Below are positions 7,269-53,065 of a DNA stretch of 64,000 nucleotides, one piece after another. The DNA is from Stenotrophomonas sp. SAU14A_NAIMI4_8 (GTDB lineage Bacteria; Pseudomonadota; Gammaproteobacteria; Xanthomonadales; Xanthomonadaceae): contig NZ_CP025999.1 of the NCBI RefSeq assembly GCF_003086695.1, forward strand, positions 3,734,344 through 3,798,343, read 5' to 3'. The notes beneath the pieces were generated by a model. It searched no databases, was not told the DNA's origin, and was given only the letters and a program-made list of their open reading frames with translations. Within the stretch, counting starts at the first letter, position 1, and the number at the start of each line of letters is the position of its first letter. The position numbers and the translations under genes were made by a program.

Positions 7269-7519
7269 TCGACGTTCCTTCGCCGGAAGATGGAGGAACG
7301 AGGATACGCCGTTGGACGTCGCGCGACGTGTCGTGTTTCGCACTCCTGGGCCGCGGCAGGATTTGCAACTTTGCTCATGGCTGCGCTGCAGTGAAACCGC
7401 GAAGGTGGCTTTGCCAACGCATCCAGCGTTGGCCGGGATTGGCGTCCTGAATGAAGTAGTTCAAAGGCGGGCTTGCGAACACGTCGCTGGCCCGAATACT
7501 GCACCGTCCGTCGTTCTGC

Positions 7520-7606
7520 GGCGGGCGGTGCGTGGGGATCTCCCGGATCCGCCGGCTTCGTTCCCTTTGAGCAACTTCACCGGCACGCCAACCCGCACCG
7601 CCCGCC
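7520..7606 (+). ncRNA. Candidate three-way-junction RNA, copy 1
   Basis: The 380-base gap 7269-7649 holds a candidate structured leader. Closing stem P1 is a perfect 13 bp (7520-7532 GGCGGGCGGTGCG with 7594-7606). Inside are P2, 7536-7540 with 7546-7550 (GGATC/GATCC), and P3, 7551-7555 with 7580-7584 (GCCGG/CCGGC). Two more copies at 48.4 and 48.9 kb keep all three stems with changed bases. About 110 bases upstream is an 8-bp hairpin (7413-7420 with 7426-7433), and at 7361-7380 a block resembling TTTCAAACTTTCCTCATTGG, also shared with the other copies. The small gene at 7650 starts 43 bases after P1. The role is unknown; a cis-regulatory leader or a small RNA are both possible. Confidence 0.6.
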
Positions 7607-7649
7607 ACCTTGCACGACGCCGGTGGCCTTGCCTTGTGAGGTTGCCGCC

Positions 7650-8045
7650 ATGACCACGCTCTACCCCACCTATCCCCGTCTGCAAGCCCTGCTGGGCAAT
7701 GCGCTGCCCGGGCTGGCGTTGCCCAGTGCCGTGGCCGAGGCCCTGGAAGATGCGTTGATGGAAGCCGCAGAAACCACACCGCCATCGGCATTCTTCACCC
7801 GGTTACGCGGCGTGGCACACGAGGCTGACGATGCACGCGGGCGCGGTCTGGCCGACGCTGCGCGCTGCCTGGCGGCGCTTTCGGCCTGCGGTAGCGTGCT
7901 GCTGGCGGCACAGTCGGCGCGGGAGCTGGATGATGTGGCCGCGCAGTGCCCGGCGCAGGTGGAAGAAGGGTTGCTGCAGGCGGTGGTGGTGCTAGCCGGG
8001 CATGCGGGCGCGCTGGTTCATGACGTTGTCGGTAGCCGCCGGTAA
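7650..8045 (+). CDS. Small acidic protein, orphan family associated with structured RNA
   Basis: A 131-residue, alanine- and leucine-rich acidic protein without signal peptide or membrane segment, predicted mainly helical. Its N-terminus, TLYPTYPRLQALLGNALPG, aligns with that of the protein at 49002 (LSPYPYLFATLGDAAHQLPA). Both are preceded by the same RNA element and a GAGG ribosome-binding site 8-9 bases before ATG, so I treat them as paralogues. I do not recognise the family. The arrangement, a short orphan gene behind a repeated structured cassette, recalls the multicopy small-gene cassettes of pseudomonads, but that is only an analogy. ATG 7650 is chosen because it follows GAGGTTGCCGCC. 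Confidence 0.72.
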   Translation: MTTLYPTYPRLQALLGNALPGLALPSAVAEALEDALMEAAETTPPSAFFTRLRGVAHEADDARGRGLADAARCLAALSACGSVLLAAQSARELDDVAAQCPAQVEEGLLQAVVVLAGHAGALVHDVVGSRR

Positions 8046-34544: not shown

Positions 34545-35801
34545 TCAGTTGTTGTCGGAAGTCAGGCTGCCTGGCCGGCCGGTCGTCGCGCAGGCACGCA
34601 GTTGCGCCTGGCGCCAACGCCGGTAGAGCGTGGTATGCAGATTGTGCAACGCCAGGTCGATGGAAAACGCGGTACGCGGGTTCCGGTCGAGCAGGCGCAC
34701 GATGTGGTAGCCGATGGGACGTATACCGCGTGGGTGCACATAGATCACGAACTGCTGGTAGAACGGATCGTCCAGCAACTGGTCCATGCGGTCCAGGGTG
34801 GCACGGTAGCGCGGTGCCAGCTGCGCCCGCAGCGCCGGATCGCGTTCGTACAGCAGCCGCTCGAAGTAGCGCCGGCCGACCCGCGGAATGCCCTGCGCCA
34901 ACCGCCACAGCTGCGCATTGCGCTGGTCGTACCAGGCAAACCCGGCGTGCGCGGCCAGCGCCTTTGCGGCGTCGGCGCCCACATCCACCACCACGAAGTT
35001 CTCGGCCTGGTTGTTCAGATCGTCCAGCAGCGCCTTGTCGCCCACGTGTTCAATGAAGCCGGGCAGGCCGACGAACGCCTGCCGCCCCTGCGCCGACGCG
35101 CGCACCGCCTTGCCGTCGGCCACGAAGTCGCCGGCGTGTGCGCCCAGCAGGATGCTGTCGGTGGCGTGCAGGCCTAGGAAGGTGCCGATGGACAGCTCGG
35201 CGGGGCTGAACTCGGCGTCGAAGGCCGCATCGCCATACAGCGCGCGCTGGCTGGCCAGCTGTGCCACCTGCCGGCCGACCCCGCATTCGGCGCGCACGCG
35301 GCCGCTCTGGAAGGCCTGCAGCGCCGCACTGTTGCTGCCCTGGGGCACGTAACCGCGACCGAAGCTGCGCGTGCGTTGCCAGCCCTGGACTTCCGCACCA
35401 CCCGCGCCGAAGCCGATCCAGCCCAGTTGCAGGCCGGAAAACCGGAAACCGGGGTTGTCCTGCAGTGCCTGGGTGGCACTGCGCGTGGCCGCACCCAACA
35501 GGAAGCTGTACGCGCAGACTGTAGCGGGGTCGTCCAGCAGCTGCTGCAGCAGCGCCTGCCGCACGCTGTCGGGCAGATCCGCCGGCCAGCGCACGCGCAG
35601 ATCACCGGCGGCCTGCGCATCGGCCAGCGAGGCACGCTGGCACACCGGGCCGCCGTGAATGTCGGGCGCCGGCAGCGCGCTGGTTTCAAAGCGCCAGCCC
35701 AGCCGTTGCAGCAGCCCCTGCGTGCAGTCCACCGCGGGCGCCGCGTGGCTGCCCAGCGGACCGGCCAGCAGCAGGCCCAGCAGCAGCGCCCGCCCCCGCA
35801 T
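34545..35801 (-). CDS. Large secreted protein of unknown function
   Basis: A 418-residue protein with a signal peptide (MRGRALLLGLLLAGPLGSHA) and several cysteines. I do not recognise it with certainty. The middle part, from VPQGSNSAALQAFQSGRVRA to QAFVGLPGFIEHVG, has Cys173 in RAECGVGRQVA, then a FDAEFSPAELSIG stretch and a later GDFV/FVGLPGF region. This order loosely recalls bacterial protein-glutamine gamma-glutamyltransferases (Tgl), which use a Cys in a similar EC context. That comparison is speculative. The last 100 residues form a separate charged helical domain. The gene starts 2 bases after the DUF2242 lipoprotein gene and precedes gnd by 10 bases. Confidence 0.8.
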   Translation of the reverse strand: MRGRALLLGLLLAGPLGSHAAPAVDCTQGLLQRLGWRFETSALPAPDIHGGPVCQRASLADAQAAGDLRVRWPADLPDSVRQALLQQLLDDPATVCAYSFLLGAATRSATQALQDNPGFRFSGLQLGWIGFGAGGAEVQGWQRTRSFGRGYVPQGSNSAALQAFQSGRVRAECGVGRQVAQLASQRALYGDAAFDAEFSPAELSIGTFLGLHATDSILLGAHAGDFVADGKAVRASAQGRQAFVGLPGFIEHVGDKALLDDLNNQAENFVVVDVGADAAKALAAHAGFAWYDQRNAQLWRLAQGIPRVGRRYFERLLYERDPALRAQLAPRYRATLDRMDQLLDDPFYQQFVIYVHPRGIRPIGYHIVRLLDRNPRTAFSIDLALHNLHTTLYRRWRQAQLRACATTGRPGSLTSDNN

Positions 35802-45320: not shown

Positions 45321-46574
45321 TCAGTCTTTGACGATCTGCGGTGCGCCCAGGCCCAGACCGGCGATGCGCCCGACAAGTTCCGCGGCGCTGGCATGGTCGG
45401 TGGCGGGTACGCGCAGGCGGAACAGGGTCCGGCCGCCGGCGGCGATGTCGCTGATGGTGGCGCCGACGATGCCGGCCGCGTTCAGCTGGCCCATGGCACG
45501 GGTGGCGTTGTCGCGGCTGGAAAAGCTGGCCACCTGCACCATCACCGCACCCACCACCTGCTGCGACAGCGTGGGCGTGGGGGCCGGCGTGCTGCGTGCC
45601 GGGGCGGCAGCTGCGCGCGGGGCGGCGGCGGCCACGGCCACCGACGCACGCGGCGCCGGGGCGCTGGGCGGCAGCGCGCTCACTGCCACGTCCGGCAAGG
45701 TACTGCTGGCGGCCTGGGTGGTGGCCGGCTGGCCACGTGCGGGCATGGGATCGGCAGGCAGGCGCTGCACCAGGCGGTCGATATCGCTGGCCGGCGTGCT
45801 GCGCGTTGCTGCTGTGGGGCGTGCCGAGGCCACCGCCGTCGCGGCAGCGGCTTCGGCGGCACGGCGCTCGCGGCGCGACGGCTTCTGCGCCAGCAGGTTG
45901 CCTTCGCCCGGCTGCAGCGCGCGCACTTCCACATTGCCGGTGCCACGCTGGGTGATGCCCAGGCGCACGGCGGCGGCATAGCTCAGGTCCACCACGCGGC
46001 CATCGTGGAACGGACCACGATCGTTGACGCGCACGATCACCGATTCGCCGTTGTCCAGGTTGGTCACGCGGGCGAAGCTGGGCAGCGGCAGCGTCTTGTG
46101 TGCGGCGGTGAACTGGTACATGTCGTAGACCTCGCGGTTGGAGGTCAGGCGGCCGTGGAACTTGGCGCCGTAGTACGACGCGGTACCGCGCTCGACATAG
46201 TCATGGGTGTCGTCCAGCACCTTGTACGACTTGCCCAGCACCACATACGGCGATTTGTTGCCGATGGTCGAGCGCTCGACCGCGGTCACTTCCGGCTCGG
46301 GAATGCAGGCCACGTTGGGCACGTAGCTGGGCGTGCTGTCTTTCACCCCGGGCTTGTACAGGCCACCGGCGGTGTAGTTGCCGCGCGTGCTCAGGTCTTC
46401 GGTGGCCGCCGCATAGGGTGAACCGTCCGGGCAGTGCGCCGGGCGCCCGCCCTTGCCCTGCACCACCGTGCCCGGCACCTTGCCGCCGTGGCCGGCGCTG
46501 GGCTTGTTCGGCGCGCTGCTGCACGCGGCCAGTGCGAGTACTGCCAGTGCGGGAACCAGCCATCTGATGTTCAT
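45321..46574 (-). CDS. rlpA: Septal-ring lytic transglycosylase RlpA with SPOR domain
   Basis: A 417-residue lipoprotein with lipobox LALAAC (Cys18). The double-psi beta-barrel RlpA domain has GTASYYGAKFHGRLTSNREV and VRVNDRGPFHDGRVVDLSYA. A long Ala/Pro-rich linker leads to a C-terminal SPOR domain (VQVASFSSRDNATRAMGQLN) that binds denuded septal glycan. In Pseudomonas RlpA cleaves glycan strands lacking stem peptides. ATG 46574 overlaps the mltB stop as ATGA, so the two lytic enzymes are coupled. The gene is 99 bases upstream of dacC. Confidence 0.95.
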   Translation of the reverse strand: MNIRWLVPALAVLALAACSSAPNKPSAGHGGKVPGTVVQGKGGRPAHCPDGSPYAAATEDLSTRGNYTAGGLYKPGVKDSTPSYVPNVACIPEPEVTAVERSTIGNKSPYVVLGKSYKVLDDTHDYVERGTASYYGAKFHGRLTSNREVYDMYQFTAAHKTLPLPSFARVTNLDNGESVIVRVNDRGPFHDGRVVDLSYAAAVRLGITQRGTGNVEVRALQPGEGNLLAQKPSRRERRAAEAAAATAVASARPTAATRSTPASDIDRLVQRLPADPMPARGQPATTQAASSTLPDVAVSALPPSAPAPRASVAVAAAAPRAAAAPARSTPAPTPTLSQQVVGAVMVQVASFSSRDNATRAMGQLNAAGIVGATISDIAAGGRTLFRLRVPATDHASAAELVGRIAGLGLGAPQIVKD

Positions 46575-47716
46575 GCCGGGGGCAGCTCCTGTCCGGCAAT
46601 GGCCTGCGACAACTGGTGCACGGCCATCGCGTACATCTTCGAGAGGTTGTAGCGGGTAATGGCGTAGTAGTTCTGGAAGCCCAGCCAGTACTGCTTGCCG
46701 GTGCTGCCTTCCAGGGTGATGGGCGTTGCGGTGGCGCCCGCCGGGACCGGCGCGCTGGGCTGGTAGCCACGCTGCGCCAGGTCGGCCAGCGACCAGGTCG
46801 GCATCCACTCGGTGGGATTGAACTCCTCGCGACCCGGCGCCAGCGTGGCCGGTACGACCACGGGGCCACCGCGCACCCAGCCACCCTTCTTCACGAAGTA
46901 GTTGGCGATGGACGAGAACACATCGTCGTAGCTGGTGAACAGGTCACGGCGGCCATCGCCGTTGCCGTCCACGGCGTAGTCCAGATAGCTGGACGGCATG
47001 AACTGGCCCATGCCCATCGCCCCGGCGTAGCTGCCCTTGAGCGTGGTGATGTCCAGCTTTTCTTCGCGGCCCAGCTCGAACAGCTTGGCCAGTTCATCGC
47101 GGAAGAACAGTTCGCGGCGCACTTCGCGTTCCAGCTTGGCCGGGTCGCCACTGCGCGGGTAATAGAAGGCCAACGTGTACAGCGCATCCAGCACGCGATG
47201 GTTGCCGGCGTTCTTGCCGTAGCTGGTTTCCACGCCGATGATCGCCACGATCACTTCGGCCGGCACGCCGGTGCGCTGCTGCACGCGGTCCAGTTCGGCA
47301 CGGTGTTCGGCCAGGAACGCGCGGCCGCCATCGATGCGCGCCTTGCTGATGAACATCGGCCGGTATTCGTTCCACGGCTTCACCCGTTCGGCCGGGCGGG
47401 CCATGGCGGCAATGATGGGCTGGCGCACCTGCGCCTGGTCCAGCACGGCGCTGATCTGCTGCGGTGCCAGGCCGTAACGCTTGGCGGTATCGGCAATGAA
47501 GTTGGCGCGCGCGGTTTCAAACGGCACCGGGGTCAGATCCACCGGCGGTGCGGTGCTGGCGGCAGCTTCCGGCGCGGCTTCGGCCGGGCCCTGCGGCTTG
47601 CTGGCCGGGTGGCGCGGCGAACTGCTGGCCTGCGGAGACGACGGGGGGGACGTCGGCTGGGTCGCGCAGGCGACCAGGCCGAGGGTGAGCATGCAGGCCA
47701 GAGTGCGTCGAATCAT
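46571..47716 (-). CDS. mltB: Membrane-bound lytic murein transglycosylase B
   Basis: A 381-residue lipoprotein with lipobox LVAC (Cys17) and a Ser/Pro/Ala-rich linker. The MltB catalytic domain has Glu163 in AIIGVETSYGKNAGNHRVLD, and also YAGAMGMGQFMPSSYLDYAV and DGNGDGRRDLFTSYDDVFSS, an EF-hand-like calcium loop as in Slt35. It cleaves peptidoglycan non-hydrolytically from the outer membrane. ATG 47716 is taken; the preceding GTG is an alternative. The stop overlaps rlpA. In this genome it sits between rlpA and the rod-system genes, but a repeat-rich segment now separates it from rodA. Confidence 0.95.
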   Translation of the reverse strand: MIRRTLACMLTLGLVACATQPTSPPSSPQASSSPRHPASKPQGPAEAAPEAAASTAPPVDLTPVPFETARANFIADTAKRYGLAPQQISAVLDQAQVRQPIIAAMARPAERVKPWNEYRPMFISKARIDGGRAFLAEHRAELDRVQQRTGVPAEVIVAIIGVETSYGKNAGNHRVLDALYTLAFYYPRSGDPAKLEREVRRELFFRDELAKLFELGREEKLDITTLKGSYAGAMGMGQFMPSSYLDYAVDGNGDGRRDLFTSYDDVFSSIANYFVKKGGWVRGGPVVVPATLAPGREEFNPTEWMPTWSLADLAQRGYQPSAPVPAGATATPITLEGSTGKQYWLGFQNYYAITRYNLSKMYAMAVHQLSQAIAGQELPPA

Positions 47717-48447
47717 CACCGCAGGTTAGCAGGTCATGGATGAATTAAAACCCCTAACACCATGAATCACAACGATTTGCCTGCAGGCAGACGCTTTTGT
47801 GAAAACGGTGTGAGTGACCTGCCGCATTCAGAAACAGAGGTGGCCGGTTGCGTCCCCATCCCCGCAGACGCAACCGGCGACCGGATCCGGTCGGTACCTG
47901 CGCGGCTGCCGCTCCCCAGTGGCAGTGCTCCGCGCTCCCTGTACCCGTTGGATCAGTACTGCTTTCCCGCCCGGCGCCCCTCGCGCTGCATCAGTGATGG
48001 CGCGCCGTGCCGAACGGGCCGCCATTGTGCAGGCCGATTGCGACAAGTCTATTGATCAAGATCAACATCGCGTCAAAGTGTGATTGGTCGCCCACTTTTA
48101 TTGGAACTTCGTCAGCGAGCTGGTGTTCATCCGGGGTTACGCAAACGCTTACAGAAACGGGTTTGCGCAGATTCAGGTGGCGAACGCCGGGAATGGCAGC
48201 GGTTTCGGGCGGCGCGTCGTGTCGCTATCGCCACTAGGGTTGCATCGTGCGGCGCACTTCTGACGAATTCGACTTTCAAACTTTCCTCATTGGTGCGGCG
48301 GGCGCGGCGTGCGAAACATGCGGGGCCACCGACAACGGGTGGCACGGGCTTGCAATCCCGTAGCACCAACGCGTTGTTTACGCTTGCCAGTCGGCGTCGT
48401 CTTTTCCGTGTGGGCGACGCCGGCTGGCAATCCGTCCGTGCGTCTCT

Positions 48448-48526
48448 GGCGGGCGGTGCGTGGGGGCCTTGTGCCCGCCGGTTCTTCGCCGTTGGTCCCC
48501 GGTATTGCAACCACGCATCGCCTGCC
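48448..48526 (+). ncRNA. Candidate three-way-junction RNA, copy 2 (no gene attached)
   Basis: P1 is 16 bp (48448-48463 with 48511-48526) with two G-U pairs. P2 is GGGC/GCCC (48464-48467 with 48473-48476, loop CTTGT). P3 is GCCGG/CCGGT (48477-48481 with 48499-48503). Compared with copy 1 the P2 sequence is different but still pairs, and the first P3 pair is G-U instead of G-C. No start codon follows; the second unit of the tandem repeat begins instead. Confidence 0.6.
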
Positions 48527-48871
48527 ACCCTCGCCCTGCGTGCGGGGTGGTGGATCTGCCTGCCGCGCGAGGATCCTGCAACGAATTTGCGCAGATTCAG
48601 GCGGCGAACGCCGGGGAATGGCGGCGGTTTCGAGCGGCGCGTCCTGTCGCTATCGCCACTATGGGTGCGTCGTGCGGCGCCCTTCTGACGAATTCGACTT
48701 TCAAACTTTCCTCATTGGCCCAGCGGACGTGGCGTGCGAAACATCCCGTGCCACCGACAACGGGTGGCACGGGACTCCAATCCCGTTAACCGATGCGTTG
48801 TTTACGCTTGCCAGTCGGCGTCGTCTTTTCCGTGTGGGCGACGTCGGCTGGCAATCCGTCCGTGCGTCTTT

Positions 48872-48951
48872 GGCGGGCGGTGCGTGGAGGGCCTTGTGCC
48901 CACCGGAGTTCCCGCATTGGTTACCGGTATTGGAGCCACGCATCGCCTGCC
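48872..48951 (+). ncRNA. Candidate three-way-junction RNA, copy 3
   Basis: P1 is 16 bp (48872-48887 with 48936-48951). P2 is GGGC/GCCC (48889-48892 with 48898-48901). P3 is ACCGG/CCGGT (48902-48906 with 48924-48928), so the first P3 pair is A-U here, G-U in copy 2 and G-C in copy 1. This compensatory series supports a real structure. The small gene at 49002 starts 50 bases after P1. Confidence 0.6.
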
Positions 48952-49001
48952 ACCCTCGCCCTGCGGGGTGGTGGATCTGCCTGCCGCGCGAGGATCCTGC
49001 C

Positions 49002-49412
49002 ATGACGCTATCGCCTTACCCGTACCTGTTCGCCACCCTGGGCGACGCCGCCCATCAACTTCCGGCCGACATCGCCCGCGCCCTGGAAACCACACTGACC
49101 GCCCACCAGGCGGCCAATACCGAAGACGGCATCACCCTGCTGGGCGCCCCGCGGCGCATCCGCCAGGTGGACGCCGCCGATGGGCAGGCCTGGCAAGGGC
49201 GGCAGCACACGCCGGGGCAGTGCATGGCGCTGGCACGCATCGACCGCGCCAACAGCGGCCTGACCTTCCTGCTGGAACTGCTGCATGCCGCCGAACGCGT
49301 GCGGGTGGACGGCGACGAGGCCCAGCAACTGGGAGACGACGCCCGCGAGGGCTTGCTGCTGGCCTGCCGGGGGTTGTCCGAATACGTGGATGTGCAGTTG
49401 CGCGTGGCGTGA
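49002..49412 (+). CDS. Small protein, paralogue of the 7650 protein
   Basis: A 136-residue soluble, mildly acidic protein with no signal peptide or membrane helix. The N-terminus LSPYPYLFATLGDAAHQLPA aligns with that of the protein at 7650, and the C-terminal half (SGLTFLLELLHAAERVRVDG) is predicted helical. ATG 49002 is supported by GAGGATCCTGCC directly upstream, as in the paralogue (GAGGTTGCCGCC). An open frame continues upstream through both repeat units, but that part reads the structured RNA and is rejected as coding. The gene is on the strand opposite to the surrounding rod and mltB genes. No known function. Confidence 0.72.
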   Translation: MTLSPYPYLFATLGDAAHQLPADIARALETTLTAHQAANTEDGITLLGAPRRIRQVDAADGQAWQGRQHTPGQCMALARIDRANSGLTFLLELLHAAERVRVDGDEAQQLGDDAREGLLLACRGLSEYVDVQLRVA

Positions 49413-49424
49413 GCGAAACGCGTA

Positions 49425-49461
49425 TTGGCTGTTGGCTGTTGGCTGTTGGCTGTTGGCTGTT
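49425..49461 (+). repeat. Heptanucleotide repeat, five copies
   Basis: Five exact copies of TTGGCTG (49425-49459) plus TT follow the small gene by 12 bases. A 7-base unit of this kind is prone to slippage, so copy number may vary between strains. It is outside any coding sequence. Confidence 0.92.
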
Positions 49462-49462
49462 C

Positions 49463-49820
49463 GTAGAGTCGAGCTTGCTCGACTGGTTTGCCCGAAAAGC
49501 AGTCGAGCAAGCTCGACTCTACAAGGGCAAAAGCGAAGTCGAGCAAGCTCGACTCTACAAAGGCCAAGGCGTAGTCGAGCACCATCGACGGTATGCGACG
49601 AGGGCAAAAGCGCAGTCGAGCACCGTCGTCGGTACGCAACGAAGGCAAAAGCGCGGTCGAGCACCGCGGACGGCACGCGACAAAGGCCAAAGCGCCGTCG
49701 CCGCACCATCGTCGGCACGCGGCAAGAGCCAAAGCGCAGTCGGGCACCGTCGAGGGTACGCGACGAGGGCAAGAGCGCAGTCGAGCACCATCAACGGTAC
49801 CCGACGAGGGCCCTAACGCA
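49463..49820 (+). repeat. SMAG elements grading into a degenerate 41-base array
   Basis: A plus-strand SMAG at 49463 is followed by units starting at 49501, 49537, 49573, 49614, 49655, 49696, 49738 and 49779. The first two are intact minus-strand SMAG elements (arm AGTCGAGCAAGCTCGACT, period 36). The remaining six are 41-42 bases long, begin with AGTCGAGCACC or a variant, and end GGGCAAAAGCGC or a variant, with loss of the palindrome. The 465-base gap 49413-49877 holds nothing but these repeats and a 40-base palindrome. Confidence 0.88.
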
Positions 49821-49830
49821 GTCGTGCATC

Positions 49831-49870
49831 GGGGTCAGATCCCGTTCCCCGGAGAGAGGGATCCGACCCC
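49831..49870 (+). repeat. 40-base palindrome of the GGGGTC family
   Basis: A diverged member of the palindrome family seen at 23889 and 33497 (arms GGGGTCAGATCCCG and GGGATCCGACCCC) lies 7 bases after the rodA stop on the minus strand and may act as its terminator. Confidence 0.8.
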
Positions 49871-49877
49871 AGGGGTG

Positions 49878-50990
49878 TCAGCCGTAGCCGCCGTGCACGG
49901 GGTTGTGGCTGCGCACGGCCATCACCAGGCCGAAGCCGGCCAGCAGCGATACGGCGGAGGTGCCGCCGTAGCTGATCAGCGGCATCGGTACGCCCACCAC
50001 CGGCAGCAGGCCGGAAATCATGCCGCCGTTCACCAGCACATAGACGAAGAACGCCAGGCCAGTAGCCCCGGCCAGCAGGCGCGAATAGGAATCGCGCGAC
50101 TGGCTGGCGATCCACAGGCAGCGCCCGATCACCACCAGGTACAGCGCCAGCACGGTGGCCACGCCGATCCAGCCGAATTCTTCGCTCAGCACCGAGAAGG
50201 CGAAATCGGTGGTCTGTTCGGGAATGAAGTTCAGGTGCGACTGCGAGCCTTCGCCCCAGCCCTTGCCGTCGAAGCCGCCCGAACCGATCGCGATCTTCGA
50301 CTGGATGATGTTCCAGCCGGCGCCCAGGGCGTCCATTTCCGGGTCCAGGAACATCATGATGCGGTCCTTCTGGTACGGCCGCAGCAGCCAGAACCAGGCC
50401 ACCGGCGCCACCGCGGCCACGCCGCCCACGCCCAGCCCCACCCACCACCACGGCAGGCCGGCCAGCAGCAGCACGAACACGCCACTGGCGGCAATCAGCA
50501 CGCCGGTGCCGAAGTCGGGCTGCAGCATCACCAGGCCGGTGGGAACGCCGATGATCACCAGCGCCATCAACACCGTGTTGAAGCGCGGCGGCAACGGCAT
50601 CTTGTGCAGGTACCAGGCCACCATCATCGGCAGGCTGACCTTCAGCAGTTCGGCCGGCTGCAGGTAGAAGAACTTCAGGTCCAGCCACTGCCGCCCGTAC
50701 TTGCCGGTGCCCAGCACGAACACCGCCAGCAGCGGAATCATCGAGATCGCATAGATCATCGGTGTGGCCGAGCGGATGCGCAGGATCGGCACGCGCGAAA
50801 TGGCCCACAGCGCGGCCAGGCCGACAATGAAGCGGGCACCCTGCGCCATCACCAGGGTGTCGCCACCGGCGCTCTTCAAGGTGGCCAGGCCAATGGCCAT
50901 CAAGGCGCCCAGGGCCAGGCACAGCACCCAGTCCAGGGTGCTGAAGAAGCGGCGCAGCATGTCGCCGGCCCAGCGCAGGAACACTCTCAT
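49878..50990 (-). CDS. mrdB: Rod-shape SEDS glycosyltransferase RodA
   Basis: A 370-residue polytopic SEDS protein that polymerises lipid II in the elongasome with PBP2. About ten membrane helices are visible. Family motifs are DFGTGVLIAASGVFVLLLAG, with the aspartate of the SEDS catalytic loop region, the periplasmic loop IIQSKIAIGSGGFDGKGWGE, and the end VVGVPMPLISYGGTSAVSL. ATG 50990 overlaps the mrdA stop as ATGA. It is the last gene of the mreB-mreC-mreD-mrdA-mrdB operon; a repeat cassette follows instead of mltB. Confidence 0.97.
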   Translation of the reverse strand: MRVFLRWAGDMLRRFFSTLDWVLCLALGALMAIGLATLKSAGGDTLVMAQGARFIVGLAALWAISRVPILRIRSATPMIYAISMIPLLAVFVLGTGKYGRQWLDLKFFYLQPAELLKVSLPMMVAWYLHKMPLPPRFNTVLMALVIIGVPTGLVMLQPDFGTGVLIAASGVFVLLLAGLPWWWVGLGVGGVAAVAPVAWFWLLRPYQKDRIMMFLDPEMDALGAGWNIIQSKIAIGSGGFDGKGWGEGSQSHLNFIPEQTTDFAFSVLSEEFGWIGVATVLALYLVVIGRCLWIASQSRDSYSRLLAGATGLAFFVYVLVNGGMISGLLPVVGVPMPLISYGGTSAVSLLAGFGLVMAVRSHNPVHGGYG

Positions 50991-53065
50991 CGCGAAGCCT
51001 CGGCGGCAGGGGAGCGCGGCGCGCTGGGGGCGGCGGCGGCCGGTGCGGGCGGCGCAGGCGCAGGAACGGGCTCGGGTGCAGGTGCAGGAACGCCCACCAG
51101 CACCGGCAGTTCGGCCAGCAGCGCGGCGGCGGCATCACCGGCCGGGCGCGCGTTCACGTCTTCGTTGTCGAAGGCGGTGGTGCCGATGGCGGTGGTGCCA
51201 CGCTCGCTGTCCAGCGGCTGCATGCCTTCAGGCATCTTGCCCAGCAGCCAGGCATCGAAGATCTTGCGCGCGATAGGTGCCGCGGCCGAGCCACCGTAGC
51301 CACCGCCTTCCACGGCAATGGCCAAGGCGATCACCGGTTGTTCGGCGGGCGCGAAGCCCACGAACAGCGCGCGGTGGCGCAGGTGCATGGGCAGGCTCTT
51401 GGGGTTCACCGCTGCGGTGCCCTTGCGGCTGATCACCTGCGCGGTACCGGTCTTGCCGGCCATGGTATACGGCGCGCCGACGGCCATGCGCGCGGCGCTG
51501 CCGCCGGGCTGCATGGTGGCCATCATGCCTTCGCGCACGGCCTGCACGTTGTTCGGGTTGGGGCTGACCGGCTTGCTCGGCCCGGCTTCGGTGGTCACCC
51601 AATCGTGGTCGAAGCCGGCGCGCTGCTGCATGACCAGATGCGGGGTGCGCAGCTGGCCATCGGCCAACGCACTGACGCCGCGCGCCAGCTGCAGCGGGGT
51701 GACCTTCCAGTCGCCCTGGCCGATGCTGATGTTGACCGTATCGCCGGGGTACCAGCGCTCCTTGCGGCTCTTGGCCTTGTAGGCCGGCGACGGCAGGATG
51801 CCGCCGATTTCGCCGGTCAGGTCGATGCCGGTCGGCGCGCCGAAGCCGTAGTACTCCATGTAATGGTCGAAGCGCTCGATGCCCAGGTCCAGCGCCAGCT
51901 TGTAGTAGTAGGTGTTCACCGACTGCGCGATCGACTTGCGCAGGTCGGTCCAGCCATGGCCGCCGCGGTGCGAATCGCCCCAGCCGCGGCTGGTGCCCGG
52001 CAGGTAGAACATGCCGGTGGACAGCACCTTGTCTTCCGGCCGGCGCACGCCCGAATCCAGGCCGGCCAGGCCGATCAACGGCTTCAGGGTGGAACCGGGG
52101 GCCACGCCACCCAGCACCAGGCGGTTGAACTGCGGCCGCGACGGGTTCTCGTTCAGCGCCTTGAAATCGGCATGGGAAATGCCGTTGACGAACAGATTCG
52201 GGTCGTAGGACGGCAGGCTGACCATCGCCAGCACTTCGCCGGTACGCGGGTCCATCGCCACGGCCGAGCCTTCCTGCTCGCCGAAGGCGGCGACCATGGC
52301 GCGCTGCAGGTCGGCATCGATGGACAGGCGCAGATCGGCACCGGACTGCGCGGCCACCCGGCCGATGGTGCGGATGGCCCGCCCCTGCACGTTGGTTTCC
52401 ACCTGCTCGTAGCCGACCTTGCCGCGCAGTTCGTGCTCGTAATAGCGCTCCAGGCCGGACTTGCCGATATGGGTCAGGGCCGCATTGCCCTCGCCCAGCA
52501 TTTCCAGATCCTTGTCGTCCACCCGGCCGACGTAGCCGATGATGTGCGCGAACAGGTCGCCATAGGGGTAGCGGCGGGTCAGGTAGGGTTCCAGCTCCAC
52601 GCCGGGGAAGCGCCAGCGGTCCACCGCGAACCGCGCCATTTCCTCGTCGGTCATGCGCAGCTTCAGGGTGACCGGCAGGAACTTGCGGCGCGCCTTGCGC
52701 GATTTGTTGAACGCTTCCAGCTCTTCGGGGCTGATGCTGATGATCTTCGCCAGCCCTTCCAGGGTGGCGTCCATGTCCTTCACCTTGTCCGGGGTCACGT
52801 CCAGGCGGAAGGCCGGCACGTTCTCGGCCAGCAGGCGGCCATTGCGGTCGTAGATCATGCCGCGCCCGGGCACCACCGGCCGCGGTTTGATGCGGTTGGC
52901 TTCCGAACGCGTGGCGTAGATGTCGTGGTCCAGCACCTGCAGCTTGAAGTACCAGCCGCCCAAGCCGAGCAGACAGACCAGCACGCCCAGGAAGCCCAGC
53001 GCCGCGCGGCGGCGGAACTGCTCGGCTTCAGCGTGCGGGTTCTTCACCTGCCGGCGCGGAATCAT
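50987..53065 (-). CDS. mrdA: Penicillin-binding protein 2
   Basis: A 692-residue class B PBP, the transpeptidase of the elongasome. One membrane helix lies at about residues 20-42. The pedestal domain includes VVPGRGMIYDRNGRLLAENV. The transpeptidase motifs are STLK in GVAPGSTLKPLIGLAG, SVN in SIAQSVNTYYYKL and KTGT in TMAGKTGTAQVIS. A Pro/Ala-rich C-terminal tail of about 50 residues is longer than in E. coli PBP2 (633). It starts 3 bases after mreD and overlaps mrdB. Confidence 0.97.
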   Translation of the reverse strand: MIPRRQVKNPHAEAEQFRRRAALGFLGVLVCLLGLGGWYFKLQVLDHDIYATRSEANRIKPRPVVPGRGMIYDRNGRLLAENVPAFRLDVTPDKVKDMDATLEGLAKIISISPEELEAFNKSRKARRKFLPVTLKLRMTDEEMARFAVDRWRFPGVELEPYLTRRYPYGDLFAHIIGYVGRVDDKDLEMLGEGNAALTHIGKSGLERYYEHELRGKVGYEQVETNVQGRAIRTIGRVAAQSGADLRLSIDADLQRAMVAAFGEQEGSAVAMDPRTGEVLAMVSLPSYDPNLFVNGISHADFKALNENPSRPQFNRLVLGGVAPGSTLKPLIGLAGLDSGVRRPEDKVLSTGMFYLPGTSRGWGDSHRGGHGWTDLRKSIAQSVNTYYYKLALDLGIERFDHYMEYYGFGAPTGIDLTGEIGGILPSPAYKAKSRKERWYPGDTVNISIGQGDWKVTPLQLARGVSALADGQLRTPHLVMQQRAGFDHDWVTTEAGPSKPVSPNPNNVQAVREGMMATMQPGGSAARMAVGAPYTMAGKTGTAQVISRKGTAAVNPKSLPMHLRHRALFVGFAPAEQPVIALAIAVEGGGYGGSAAAPIARKIFDAWLLGKMPEGMQPLDSERGTTAIGTTAFDNEDVNARPAGDAAAALLAELPVLVGVPAPAPEPVPAPAPPAPAAAAPSAPRSPAAEASR

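What the first reader, a model, noticed from the sequence alone, without database searches (positions are those of the whole stretch)
7520..7606. Candidate new structured RNA with compensatory base changes, three copies in the window
The segments 7520-7606, 48448-48526 and 48872-48951 share the same three-way-junction plan: a long closing stem P1 and two inner hairpins. P2 is GGATC/GATCC in one copy and GGGC/GCCC in the others. The first pair of P3 is G-C, G-U and A-U in the three copies, and P1 shows G-C to G-U exchange. This is the pattern of selection on structure. Two copies lie 43 and 50 bases before small genes. The stems are read directly; that it is an RNA, and regulatory, is inferred.
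Basis: partly seen in the sequence, partly recalled or inferred. Interest (0 to 1): 0.8.

Follow-up and report, generated by a model that had tools for sequence, protein, structure and literature searches.

The report
Self-targeting C4 antisense RNA family
The three structured RNAs are members of a known phage antisense-RNA family (C4) that this bacterium carries in 26 chromosomal copies, most of them in front of a small gene and nearly all matched to a target just upstream that changes together with it, so a phage switch seems to have become a set of separately addressed gene controls.

Summary
All three copies are C4 antisense RNA (Rfam RF01695, above its cut-off). The genome holds 26. A gene of one paralogous family of unknown function starts behind 23 of them.

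What I found in none of the papers I could search: in 104 of 106 loci from this genus the C4 interior has a 7-base complement in the leader 53-112 bases upstream of the same C4, against 25% for mismatched pairs. At the same chromosomal site in different species, loop and target have changed together (0 of 20000 permutations; 18 sites, 62 loci). C4 loci outside the genus mostly carry a second target on the downstream ribosome-binding site (14 of 14 and 19 of 23) and a leader T-run (10 of 14 and 23 of 23). In the genus the second target is at chance level and the T-run is found in 6 of 106.

Best reading: a phage-type antisense switch, fixed and amplified in Stenotrophomonas chromosomes as privately addressed self-regulators of one protein family. 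Expression, sign and mechanism (attenuation or leader refolding) are inferred; the protein's function is unknown.

The parts
7514..7612 (+). C4 antisense RNA copy c20 (P1/P2/P3)
   Evidence: Rfam RF01695, 50.8 bits, cut-off 45
7434..7469 (+). leader target of c20: hairpin loop plus tail, complementary to about 7563-7593 of its own C4
   Evidence: duplex; sub-threshold matches to isrK (7413-7461) and c4-a1b1 (7400-7453)
7604..7627 (+). hairpin between C4 and ribosome-binding site, sharing the 3' end of P1
   Evidence: sequence; set-wide test
7650..8045 (+). small gene behind c20, 131 aa, member of the paralogous family
   Evidence: family match E 8.6e-31, 4.3e-39; the sequence is itself in both query alignments
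48346..48372 (+). leader target of c12, complementary to about 48488-48512
   Evidence: sequence. Weak: the duplex program placed its best site elsewhere; own pairing -30.0 against -26.0 (c12 C4 on c25 leader) and -24.6 (c25 C4 on c12 leader)
48383..48433 (+). long hairpin between target and C4 of c12, in the position of the leader terminator of loci outside the genus; one run of four T in its loop, none behind it
   Evidence: sequence; comparison
48442..48532 (+). C4 antisense RNA copy c12, without a family gene of its own
   Evidence: Rfam RF01695, 58.4 bits
48771..48797 (+). leader target of c25, complementary to about 48913-48937
   Evidence: duplex
48807..48856 (+). long hairpin between target and C4 of c25
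   Evidence: sequence; fold
48866..48957 (+). C4 antisense RNA copy c25
   Evidence: Rfam RF01695, 45.9 bits
48950..48973 (+). hairpin between C4 and ribosome-binding site of c25
   Evidence: sequence; fold
49002..49412 (+). small gene behind c25, 136 aa, member of the paralogous family
   Evidence: family match E 5.1e-56, 1.3e-58; the sequence is itself in both query alignments
48156..49000 (+). 424-bp head-to-tail duplication holding units c12 and c25 up to just before the ATG
   Evidence: blastn of the stretch against itself

Best explanation
Each copy is one unit: leader with a target hairpin and variable tail, a long hairpin, C4 RNA, a short hairpin, ribosome-binding site, small gene. The leader and the C4 of one unit are an antisense pair. 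C4 is probably cut from the transcript by RNase P and then pairs with the leader of transcripts from its own locus, or pairs with it inside the same transcript, and so holds down expression of the gene behind it. The unit descends from the phage module (P1/P7 C4 with its targets, P4 seqA-CI, Gifsy-1 IsrK) but no longer shows the second target on the ribosome-binding site. That would free the P3 loop from having to match a Shine-Dalgarno sequence, so each locus could drift to a private loop/target pair. Shown here: family membership, copy number, linkage to one gene family, own-leader complementarity, joint change at orthologous sites, absence of a downstream-target signal. Inferred: transcription, processing, repression, and whether it acts by early termination or by refolding of the leader.
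For: Rfam C4 above cut-off for 3 of 3 window copies and 26 in the genome. A family gene directly behind 23 of 26 C4; 23 of 24 family genes lie behind a C4 (query without the c15 gene). Over 41 genus genomes all 22 with a family match also have C4; 2 more have C4 only; 17 have neither. Own-leader pairing in the own genome: -52.8 against -44.2 kcal/mol for other leaders, 0 of 10000 permutations; within each of 9 genomes 0 to 2 of 20000 permutations. 7-base complement in own leader 104 of 106, mismatched rate 25%; downstream 16 of 106 = 15.1%, mismatched rate 15.2%; own genome 25 of 26 up, 3 of 26 down. Same-site swap between species: own -36.96, permuted -31.53, sd 0.67, 0 of 20000; 18 sites, 62 loci. 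C4 loci outside the genus: downstream match 14 of 14 and 19 of 23 (mismatched 25% and 18%), leader match 14 of 14 and 23 of 23 (mismatched 40% and 27%), run of five T before C4 10 of 14 and 23 of 23, against 6 of 106 in the genus. RNase P-like 3' NCC after P1 in 102 of 106. Published precedent for a leader RNA complementary to RNA from the same transcript, with two alternative folds: IsrK, PMC4825925 sections 12 and 21.
Against: No expression data. Privacy is incomplete: by duplex energy the own leader is the single best partner for only 12 of 26 C4 here (64 of 77 in eight other genomes, with fewer loci sampled). c15 and L123 are the 2 of 106 misses; c15 ranks 19th of 26 for its own leader. 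c16 carries the P3 loop of c19 on a leader it fits poorly (-29.7 own, -40.8 on c19). c12's best predicted site lies elsewhere. c12 and c23 have no family gene, c15 has an 82-aa gene that does not match the family when left out of the query, and one family gene has no C4. Loss of the downstream target is not unique to the genus: the 4 of 23 outside loci without it are all in one genome, G519. The T-run that would suit intrinsic attenuation is mostly missing. Target tail and loop change no faster than the upstream flank (identity 0.61 and 0.68 against 0.67), so diversifying selection is not shown. The 106 loci include orthologs and paralogs and are not independent.
Confidence: 0.7

Rival explanations
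1. Cis switch: leader and C4 of the same molecule pair in one fold, C4 folds alone in the other, and the choice sets RNase P cutting and access to the ribosome-binding site; no free C4 acts in trans. This is a sub-case of the main reading.
For: In minimum folds of leader+C4+45 bases, 16 of 26 open P1 in favour of a leader:C4 duplex (36 or more pairs) and 10 of 26 keep P1. The hairpin behind C4 shares the 3' arm of P1: exact stem of 5 or more in 100 of 106, against 44% with shuffled downstream sequence. The IsrK locus switches in this way (PMC4825925 section 12).
Against: Covariation cannot tell cis from trans. Minimum folds of about 260-280 nt ignore co-transcriptional folding. The RNase P-like 3' NCC is conserved, which suggests that a free C4 matters.
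Confidence: 0.35
2. C4 copies are host trans-acting sRNAs with other mRNA targets, as suggested for Acinetobacter baumannii Group 1, and the leader acts only as a sponge.
For: A. baumannii copies are expressed, appear processed, and vary in the a' loop (PMC5320573 section 16). Other targets were not searched here.
Against: The variable loop has a partner in its own leader in 104 of 106 loci and tracks it at orthologous sites.
Confidence: 0.15
3. Domesticated remnants of prophage immunity, kept by drift or as repeats, without present function.
For: The outside loci are phage-type modules, one in front of an AntA antirepressor. Copy number varies from 0 to 26 in the genus sample.
Against: P1 identity 0.94-0.98 against 0.67 in the flank and 0.83 in the first 150 coding bases; preserved pairing; gene linkage. 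The window proteins match no PHROG and no phage record.
Confidence: 0.07
4. Type I toxin-antitoxin-like units in which C4 silences a toxic small protein.
For: Of five genes behind outside C4 loci that I scanned, three are SymE-like (PF08845), so C4 with a toxin-family gene occurs. Many private pairs would fit a need to avoid cross-silencing.
Against: The genus proteins scanned have no SymE or other toxin-family match and no significant solved fold; toxicity is untested.
Confidence: 0.2

Closest known systems
C4 antisense RNA, Rfam RF01695 (phages P1 and P7)
   Same: Three-way junction above the curated score in all window copies; upstream complementary target; RNase P-like ends.
   Different: Host chromosome, up to 26 copies, private targets, no downstream ribosome-binding-site signal, gene family not a known phage one.
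Acinetobacter baumannii Group 1 C4-like sRNAs (PMC5320573; passages and section 16 read)
   Same: Many chromosomal C4-like copies (21) with a variable loop, apparently cut from longer transcripts.
   Different: The paper proposes other host or phage targets for the variable loop; the parts I read do not describe a private upstream partner or joint change.
Gifsy-1 IsrK locus (PMC4825925; abstract, sections 12 and 21 read)
   Same: Leader RNA complementary to a stable RNA made from the same transcript, two alternative folds, control of a small gene; the c20 leader matches isrK below cut-off.
   Different: IsrK has a terminator and acts through orf45/anrP/antQ in one prophage; here most leaders lack a T-run and the units are many and chromosomal.
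Phage P4 seqA-CI-seqC immunity (as told in PMC4825925 section 21)
   Same: Processed antisense RNA pairs with a complementary stretch upstream in its own leader.
   Different: P4 CI also has a downstream partner, seqC; here the downstream signal is at chance level.

Membership tests
C4 antisense RNA (Rfam RF01695) | Covariance model score over the curated cut-off | tested here: met
   50.8, 58.4, 45.9 bits, cut-off 45; 26 in the genome
C4 antisense RNA (Rfam RF01695) | P1/P2/P3 three-way junction under structural selection | tested here: met
C4 antisense RNA (Rfam RF01695) | 5' processing by RNase P at the base of P1 | not testable with these tools
   only the sequence signature was checked: NCC after P1 in 102 of 106
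P1/P7-type C4 control module | Complementary target upstream of C4 (a1b1) | tested here: met
   104 of 106 genus loci, mismatched rate 25%
P1/P7-type C4 control module | Second complementary target over the downstream ribosome-binding site | tested here: not met
   16 of 106, equal to the mismatched rate of 15.2%; 14 of 14 and 19 of 23 in loci outside the genus
P1/P7-type C4 control module | Antirepressor or other phage gene behind C4 | tested here: not met
   both window proteins: no Pfam match over cut-off, no NCBIfam or PHROG match of note; no phage record match
c4-a1b1 / isrK leader (RF03163, RF01394) | Covariance model score over the curated cut-off | tested here: inconclusive
   c20 leader: 15.7 and 19.4 bits against 46.7 and 50, at the expected place; no match over cut-off anywhere in the window
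P4 seqA-CI / IsrK type attenuation | Leader terminator between target and antisense RNA | tested here: inconclusive
   hairpin seen by eye, but run of five T in only 6 of 106, against 10 of 14 and 23 of 23 outside the genus; Rho-dependent termination not testable
sRNA-Xcc1 (RF02221) | Covariance model match | tested here: inconclusive
   not listed, but only the best match of a clan is kept where related families overlap, and I did not check its clan

The most novel reading that the evidence does not exclude
A phage immunity RNA has become a chromosomal address system: some twenty small-protein genes in one cell each carry a private antisense pair, made possible by loss of the ribosome-binding-site target, and the pairs are kept apart by selection against cross-talk, so that they can be read as naturally evolved orthogonal RNA regulators.
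Probability: 0.4. Interest if true: 0.78.

Novelty: new variant of a known kind. Interest (0 to 1): 0.57.

Why it matters
It proposes a concrete answer to a question left open in the A. baumannii work (what do many host C4-like RNAs with variable loops pair with?): look just upstream of each copy. It gives a natural series of paired antisense/target sequences, with same-site replacements between species, for measuring how antisense specificity evolves. It also attaches a regulator to an uncharacterised Stenotrophomonas protein family.

Tried and rejected
Rejected: a new RNA family (Rfam match); a target at the downstream ribosome-binding site in this genus; recent prophage or mobile-element spread as the source of most present copies (20 groups of two or more loci, 68 of 106, share flanking sequence, up to 7 genomes at one site; but 38 loci were ungrouped). 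Neighbours of the window copies are an S41 peptidase, an autotransporter, lytic transglycosylases, RodA and a penicillin-binding protein.

Led nowhere: protein family libraries (two weak PADLOC hits, best E 0.005). One homolog, P0080, carries a source name with DUF3077, but Pfam gives it no match up to E 10. Fold search: AlphaFold2 pLDDT 78, all-helical; best PDB hit E 1.9. Paper searches: C4 antisense with Stenotrophomonas, none; c4-a1b1, one; RF01695, four.

Corrected on checking: the family-gene count was 24 of 26 with a query alignment that contained the c15 gene; without it the count is 23 of 26. The genus scan used the alignment with c15; one genome, G028, has only weak matches there (best 2e-9). 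The fold count is 16 open and 10 closed. The T-run counts now use one pattern for all sets. The confidence was lowered from 0.72 to 0.70 for the c15 and G519 facts.

One search used some loci on the wrong strand and was replaced. A parser failed on P3 loops (5 pairs) and was replaced (104 pairs; 3 of the 26 own loops not parsed). The H2 and a1 cuts of the c12/c25 pair are misplaced and not used; the a1 figure from the same parser (101 pairs) is rough. A promoter-like block about 150 bases before C4 was seen by eye and not tested.

Sampling limits: the 80 loci of other genomes come from 10 genomes and from the listed, higher-scoring part of 294 matches (268 outside the own genome), so weak copies are under-represented. 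Counts are lower bounds (81, 33 and 11 candidates scored a genome). The outside sets (14; 23 from six genomes) were picked from listed matches and share one locus (L138 = L145).

Full report
What is there. Rfam places all three copies in C4 antisense RNA, RF01695, above the gathering score. Fold energies are better than shuffled, and on the 26 copies of the genome the junction shows paired changes beyond shuffles in four of five measures.

How many. The genome, one contig of 4.48 Mb, has 26 copies over the cut-off. In a sample of 41 genomes of the genus, 24 have C4, and 20 of these have 8 to 26 copies; 17 have none found. In a family-wide sample of 119 genomes 19 have a match; the 16 outside the genus have 1 to 4 copies. 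In a class-wide sample of 369, 24 have matches. Counts are lower bounds. No tool names the own genome.

What stands behind it. An open frame of 75 aa or more starts 15-70 bases after C4 in 102 of 106 loci. In the own genome 23 of 26 C4 have a member of one paralogous family behind them; c12 and c23 have none, c15 has an 82-aa gene that matches only if it is put into the query, and 1 of 24 family genes lacks a C4. In the genus sample all 22 genomes with a family match have C4. None of eight genes scanned has a Pfam match over its cut-off. The model of one is all-helical at moderate confidence with no significant solved relative. Neither window protein is found in 50,697 phage records.

The private target. 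Upstream of each C4 lies a hairpin and a short variable tail, read by eye, complementary to J3/1 and the P3 loop of the same C4. In the own genome own pairs beat permuted pairs (0 of 10000), and the same holds within nine genomes (0 to 2 of 20000). Own pairing is the single best for 12 of 26 here and for 64 of 77 loci in eight other genomes with fewer loci sampled. So specificity is strong but not absolute.

Joint change. Loci were grouped by flanking sequence into chromosomal sites. At several sites different species have wholly different tail sequences, each matched by its own C4 loop; at others species share them. Permuting partners among species within 18 sites (62 loci) gave 0 of 20000 as good as observed. 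Mean identity between species is 0.98 and 0.94 in the two arms of P1, 0.92 in J3/1, 0.83 in the first 150 coding bases, 0.67 in the flank, 0.68 in the P3 loop and about 0.61 in the target tail. The recognition letters change about as fast as the flank while staying paired. The tandem units c12/c25 and c11/c24 are 87% and 86% identical overall, but their loops are 58% and 30% identical.

Comparison. 14 C4 loci outside the genus and 23 from six genomes, one locus shared with the first set, show the phage plan: upstream target, a T-run in the leader in 10 of 14 and 23 of 23, C4, and in 14 of 14 and 19 of 23 a second match downstream, often running into the Shine-Dalgarno sequence. The four loci without it are all in one genome, G519. 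In the genus the second target is at chance level and the T-run is present in 6 of 106. In one outside genome with six copies (G414) the J3/1 element varies while the P3 loop keeps a Shine-Dalgarno complement (by eye). This suggests that loss of the ribosome-binding-site target freed the P3 loop in the genus. That step is inference.

Mechanism. Published modules with this layout work by early termination (P4 CI), by covering ribosome-binding sites (P1/P7 C4) or by refolding of the leader (IsrK); I read this in PMC4825925 sections 12 and 21 and PMC5320573 section 16. In the genus units the leader is the only target detected, and leader plus C4 folds either way (16 of 26 open P1, 10 of 26 keep it). 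I think repression of the gene by C4:leader pairing most likely, about 0.7, with attenuation and refolding about equally likely within that.

Literature. Weinberg et al. 2010 (PMC2864571, passages) list C4 and c4-a1b1. A. baumannii has 21 C4-like sRNAs (PMC5320573). Xylella has annotated C4 copies (PMC12189769, one passage). Mycetohabitans chromids carry some (PMC12696581, one passage). No paper in the held library has both C4 antisense and Stenotrophomonas. This covers open-licence papers only, and the supplements were not searched.

Noticed in passing
window 45324-53065: Units c12 and c25 sit on the + strand between - strand genes for lytic transglycosylases (SLT_2; DPBB/SPOR) and RodA/penicillin-binding-protein homologs, so they lie inside a cell-shape gene cluster.
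   Followed up: partly
L047, L050, L051, L137: Of five genes scanned behind outside C4 loci, three (same family) are SymE-like (PF08845) and L137 (class sample) is an AntA antirepressor; L048 has no match.
   Followed up: partly
L143 (G414:C9:1200-3600): Four C4 units in a row about 350-600 bases apart, each with a matching leader and downstream target.
   Followed up: partly
G519 (L147-L150): Four C4 loci of one genome keep leader target and T-run but have no downstream match, in front of similar gene starts.
   Followed up: no
G000:C1:2203132-2203220 (c16) and 2209591-2209678 (c19): c16 has the same P3 loop as c19 on a leader that it does not fit, which looks like a recent conversion or recombination.
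   Followed up: partly
G000:C1:1902735-1903007: One member of the protein family has no C4 match nearby.
   Followed up: partly
about 150 bases upstream of many C4 copies: A promoter-like block such as ACTTTCCTCATTGG or ACTTTTCTGATTGG recurs; sigma factor unknown (by eye).
   Followed up: no
window 35615-35709: ARAGORN reports a tRNA-Gly(gcc) of 95 bases, which seems long for this tRNA (the expectation is recalled).
   Followed up: no
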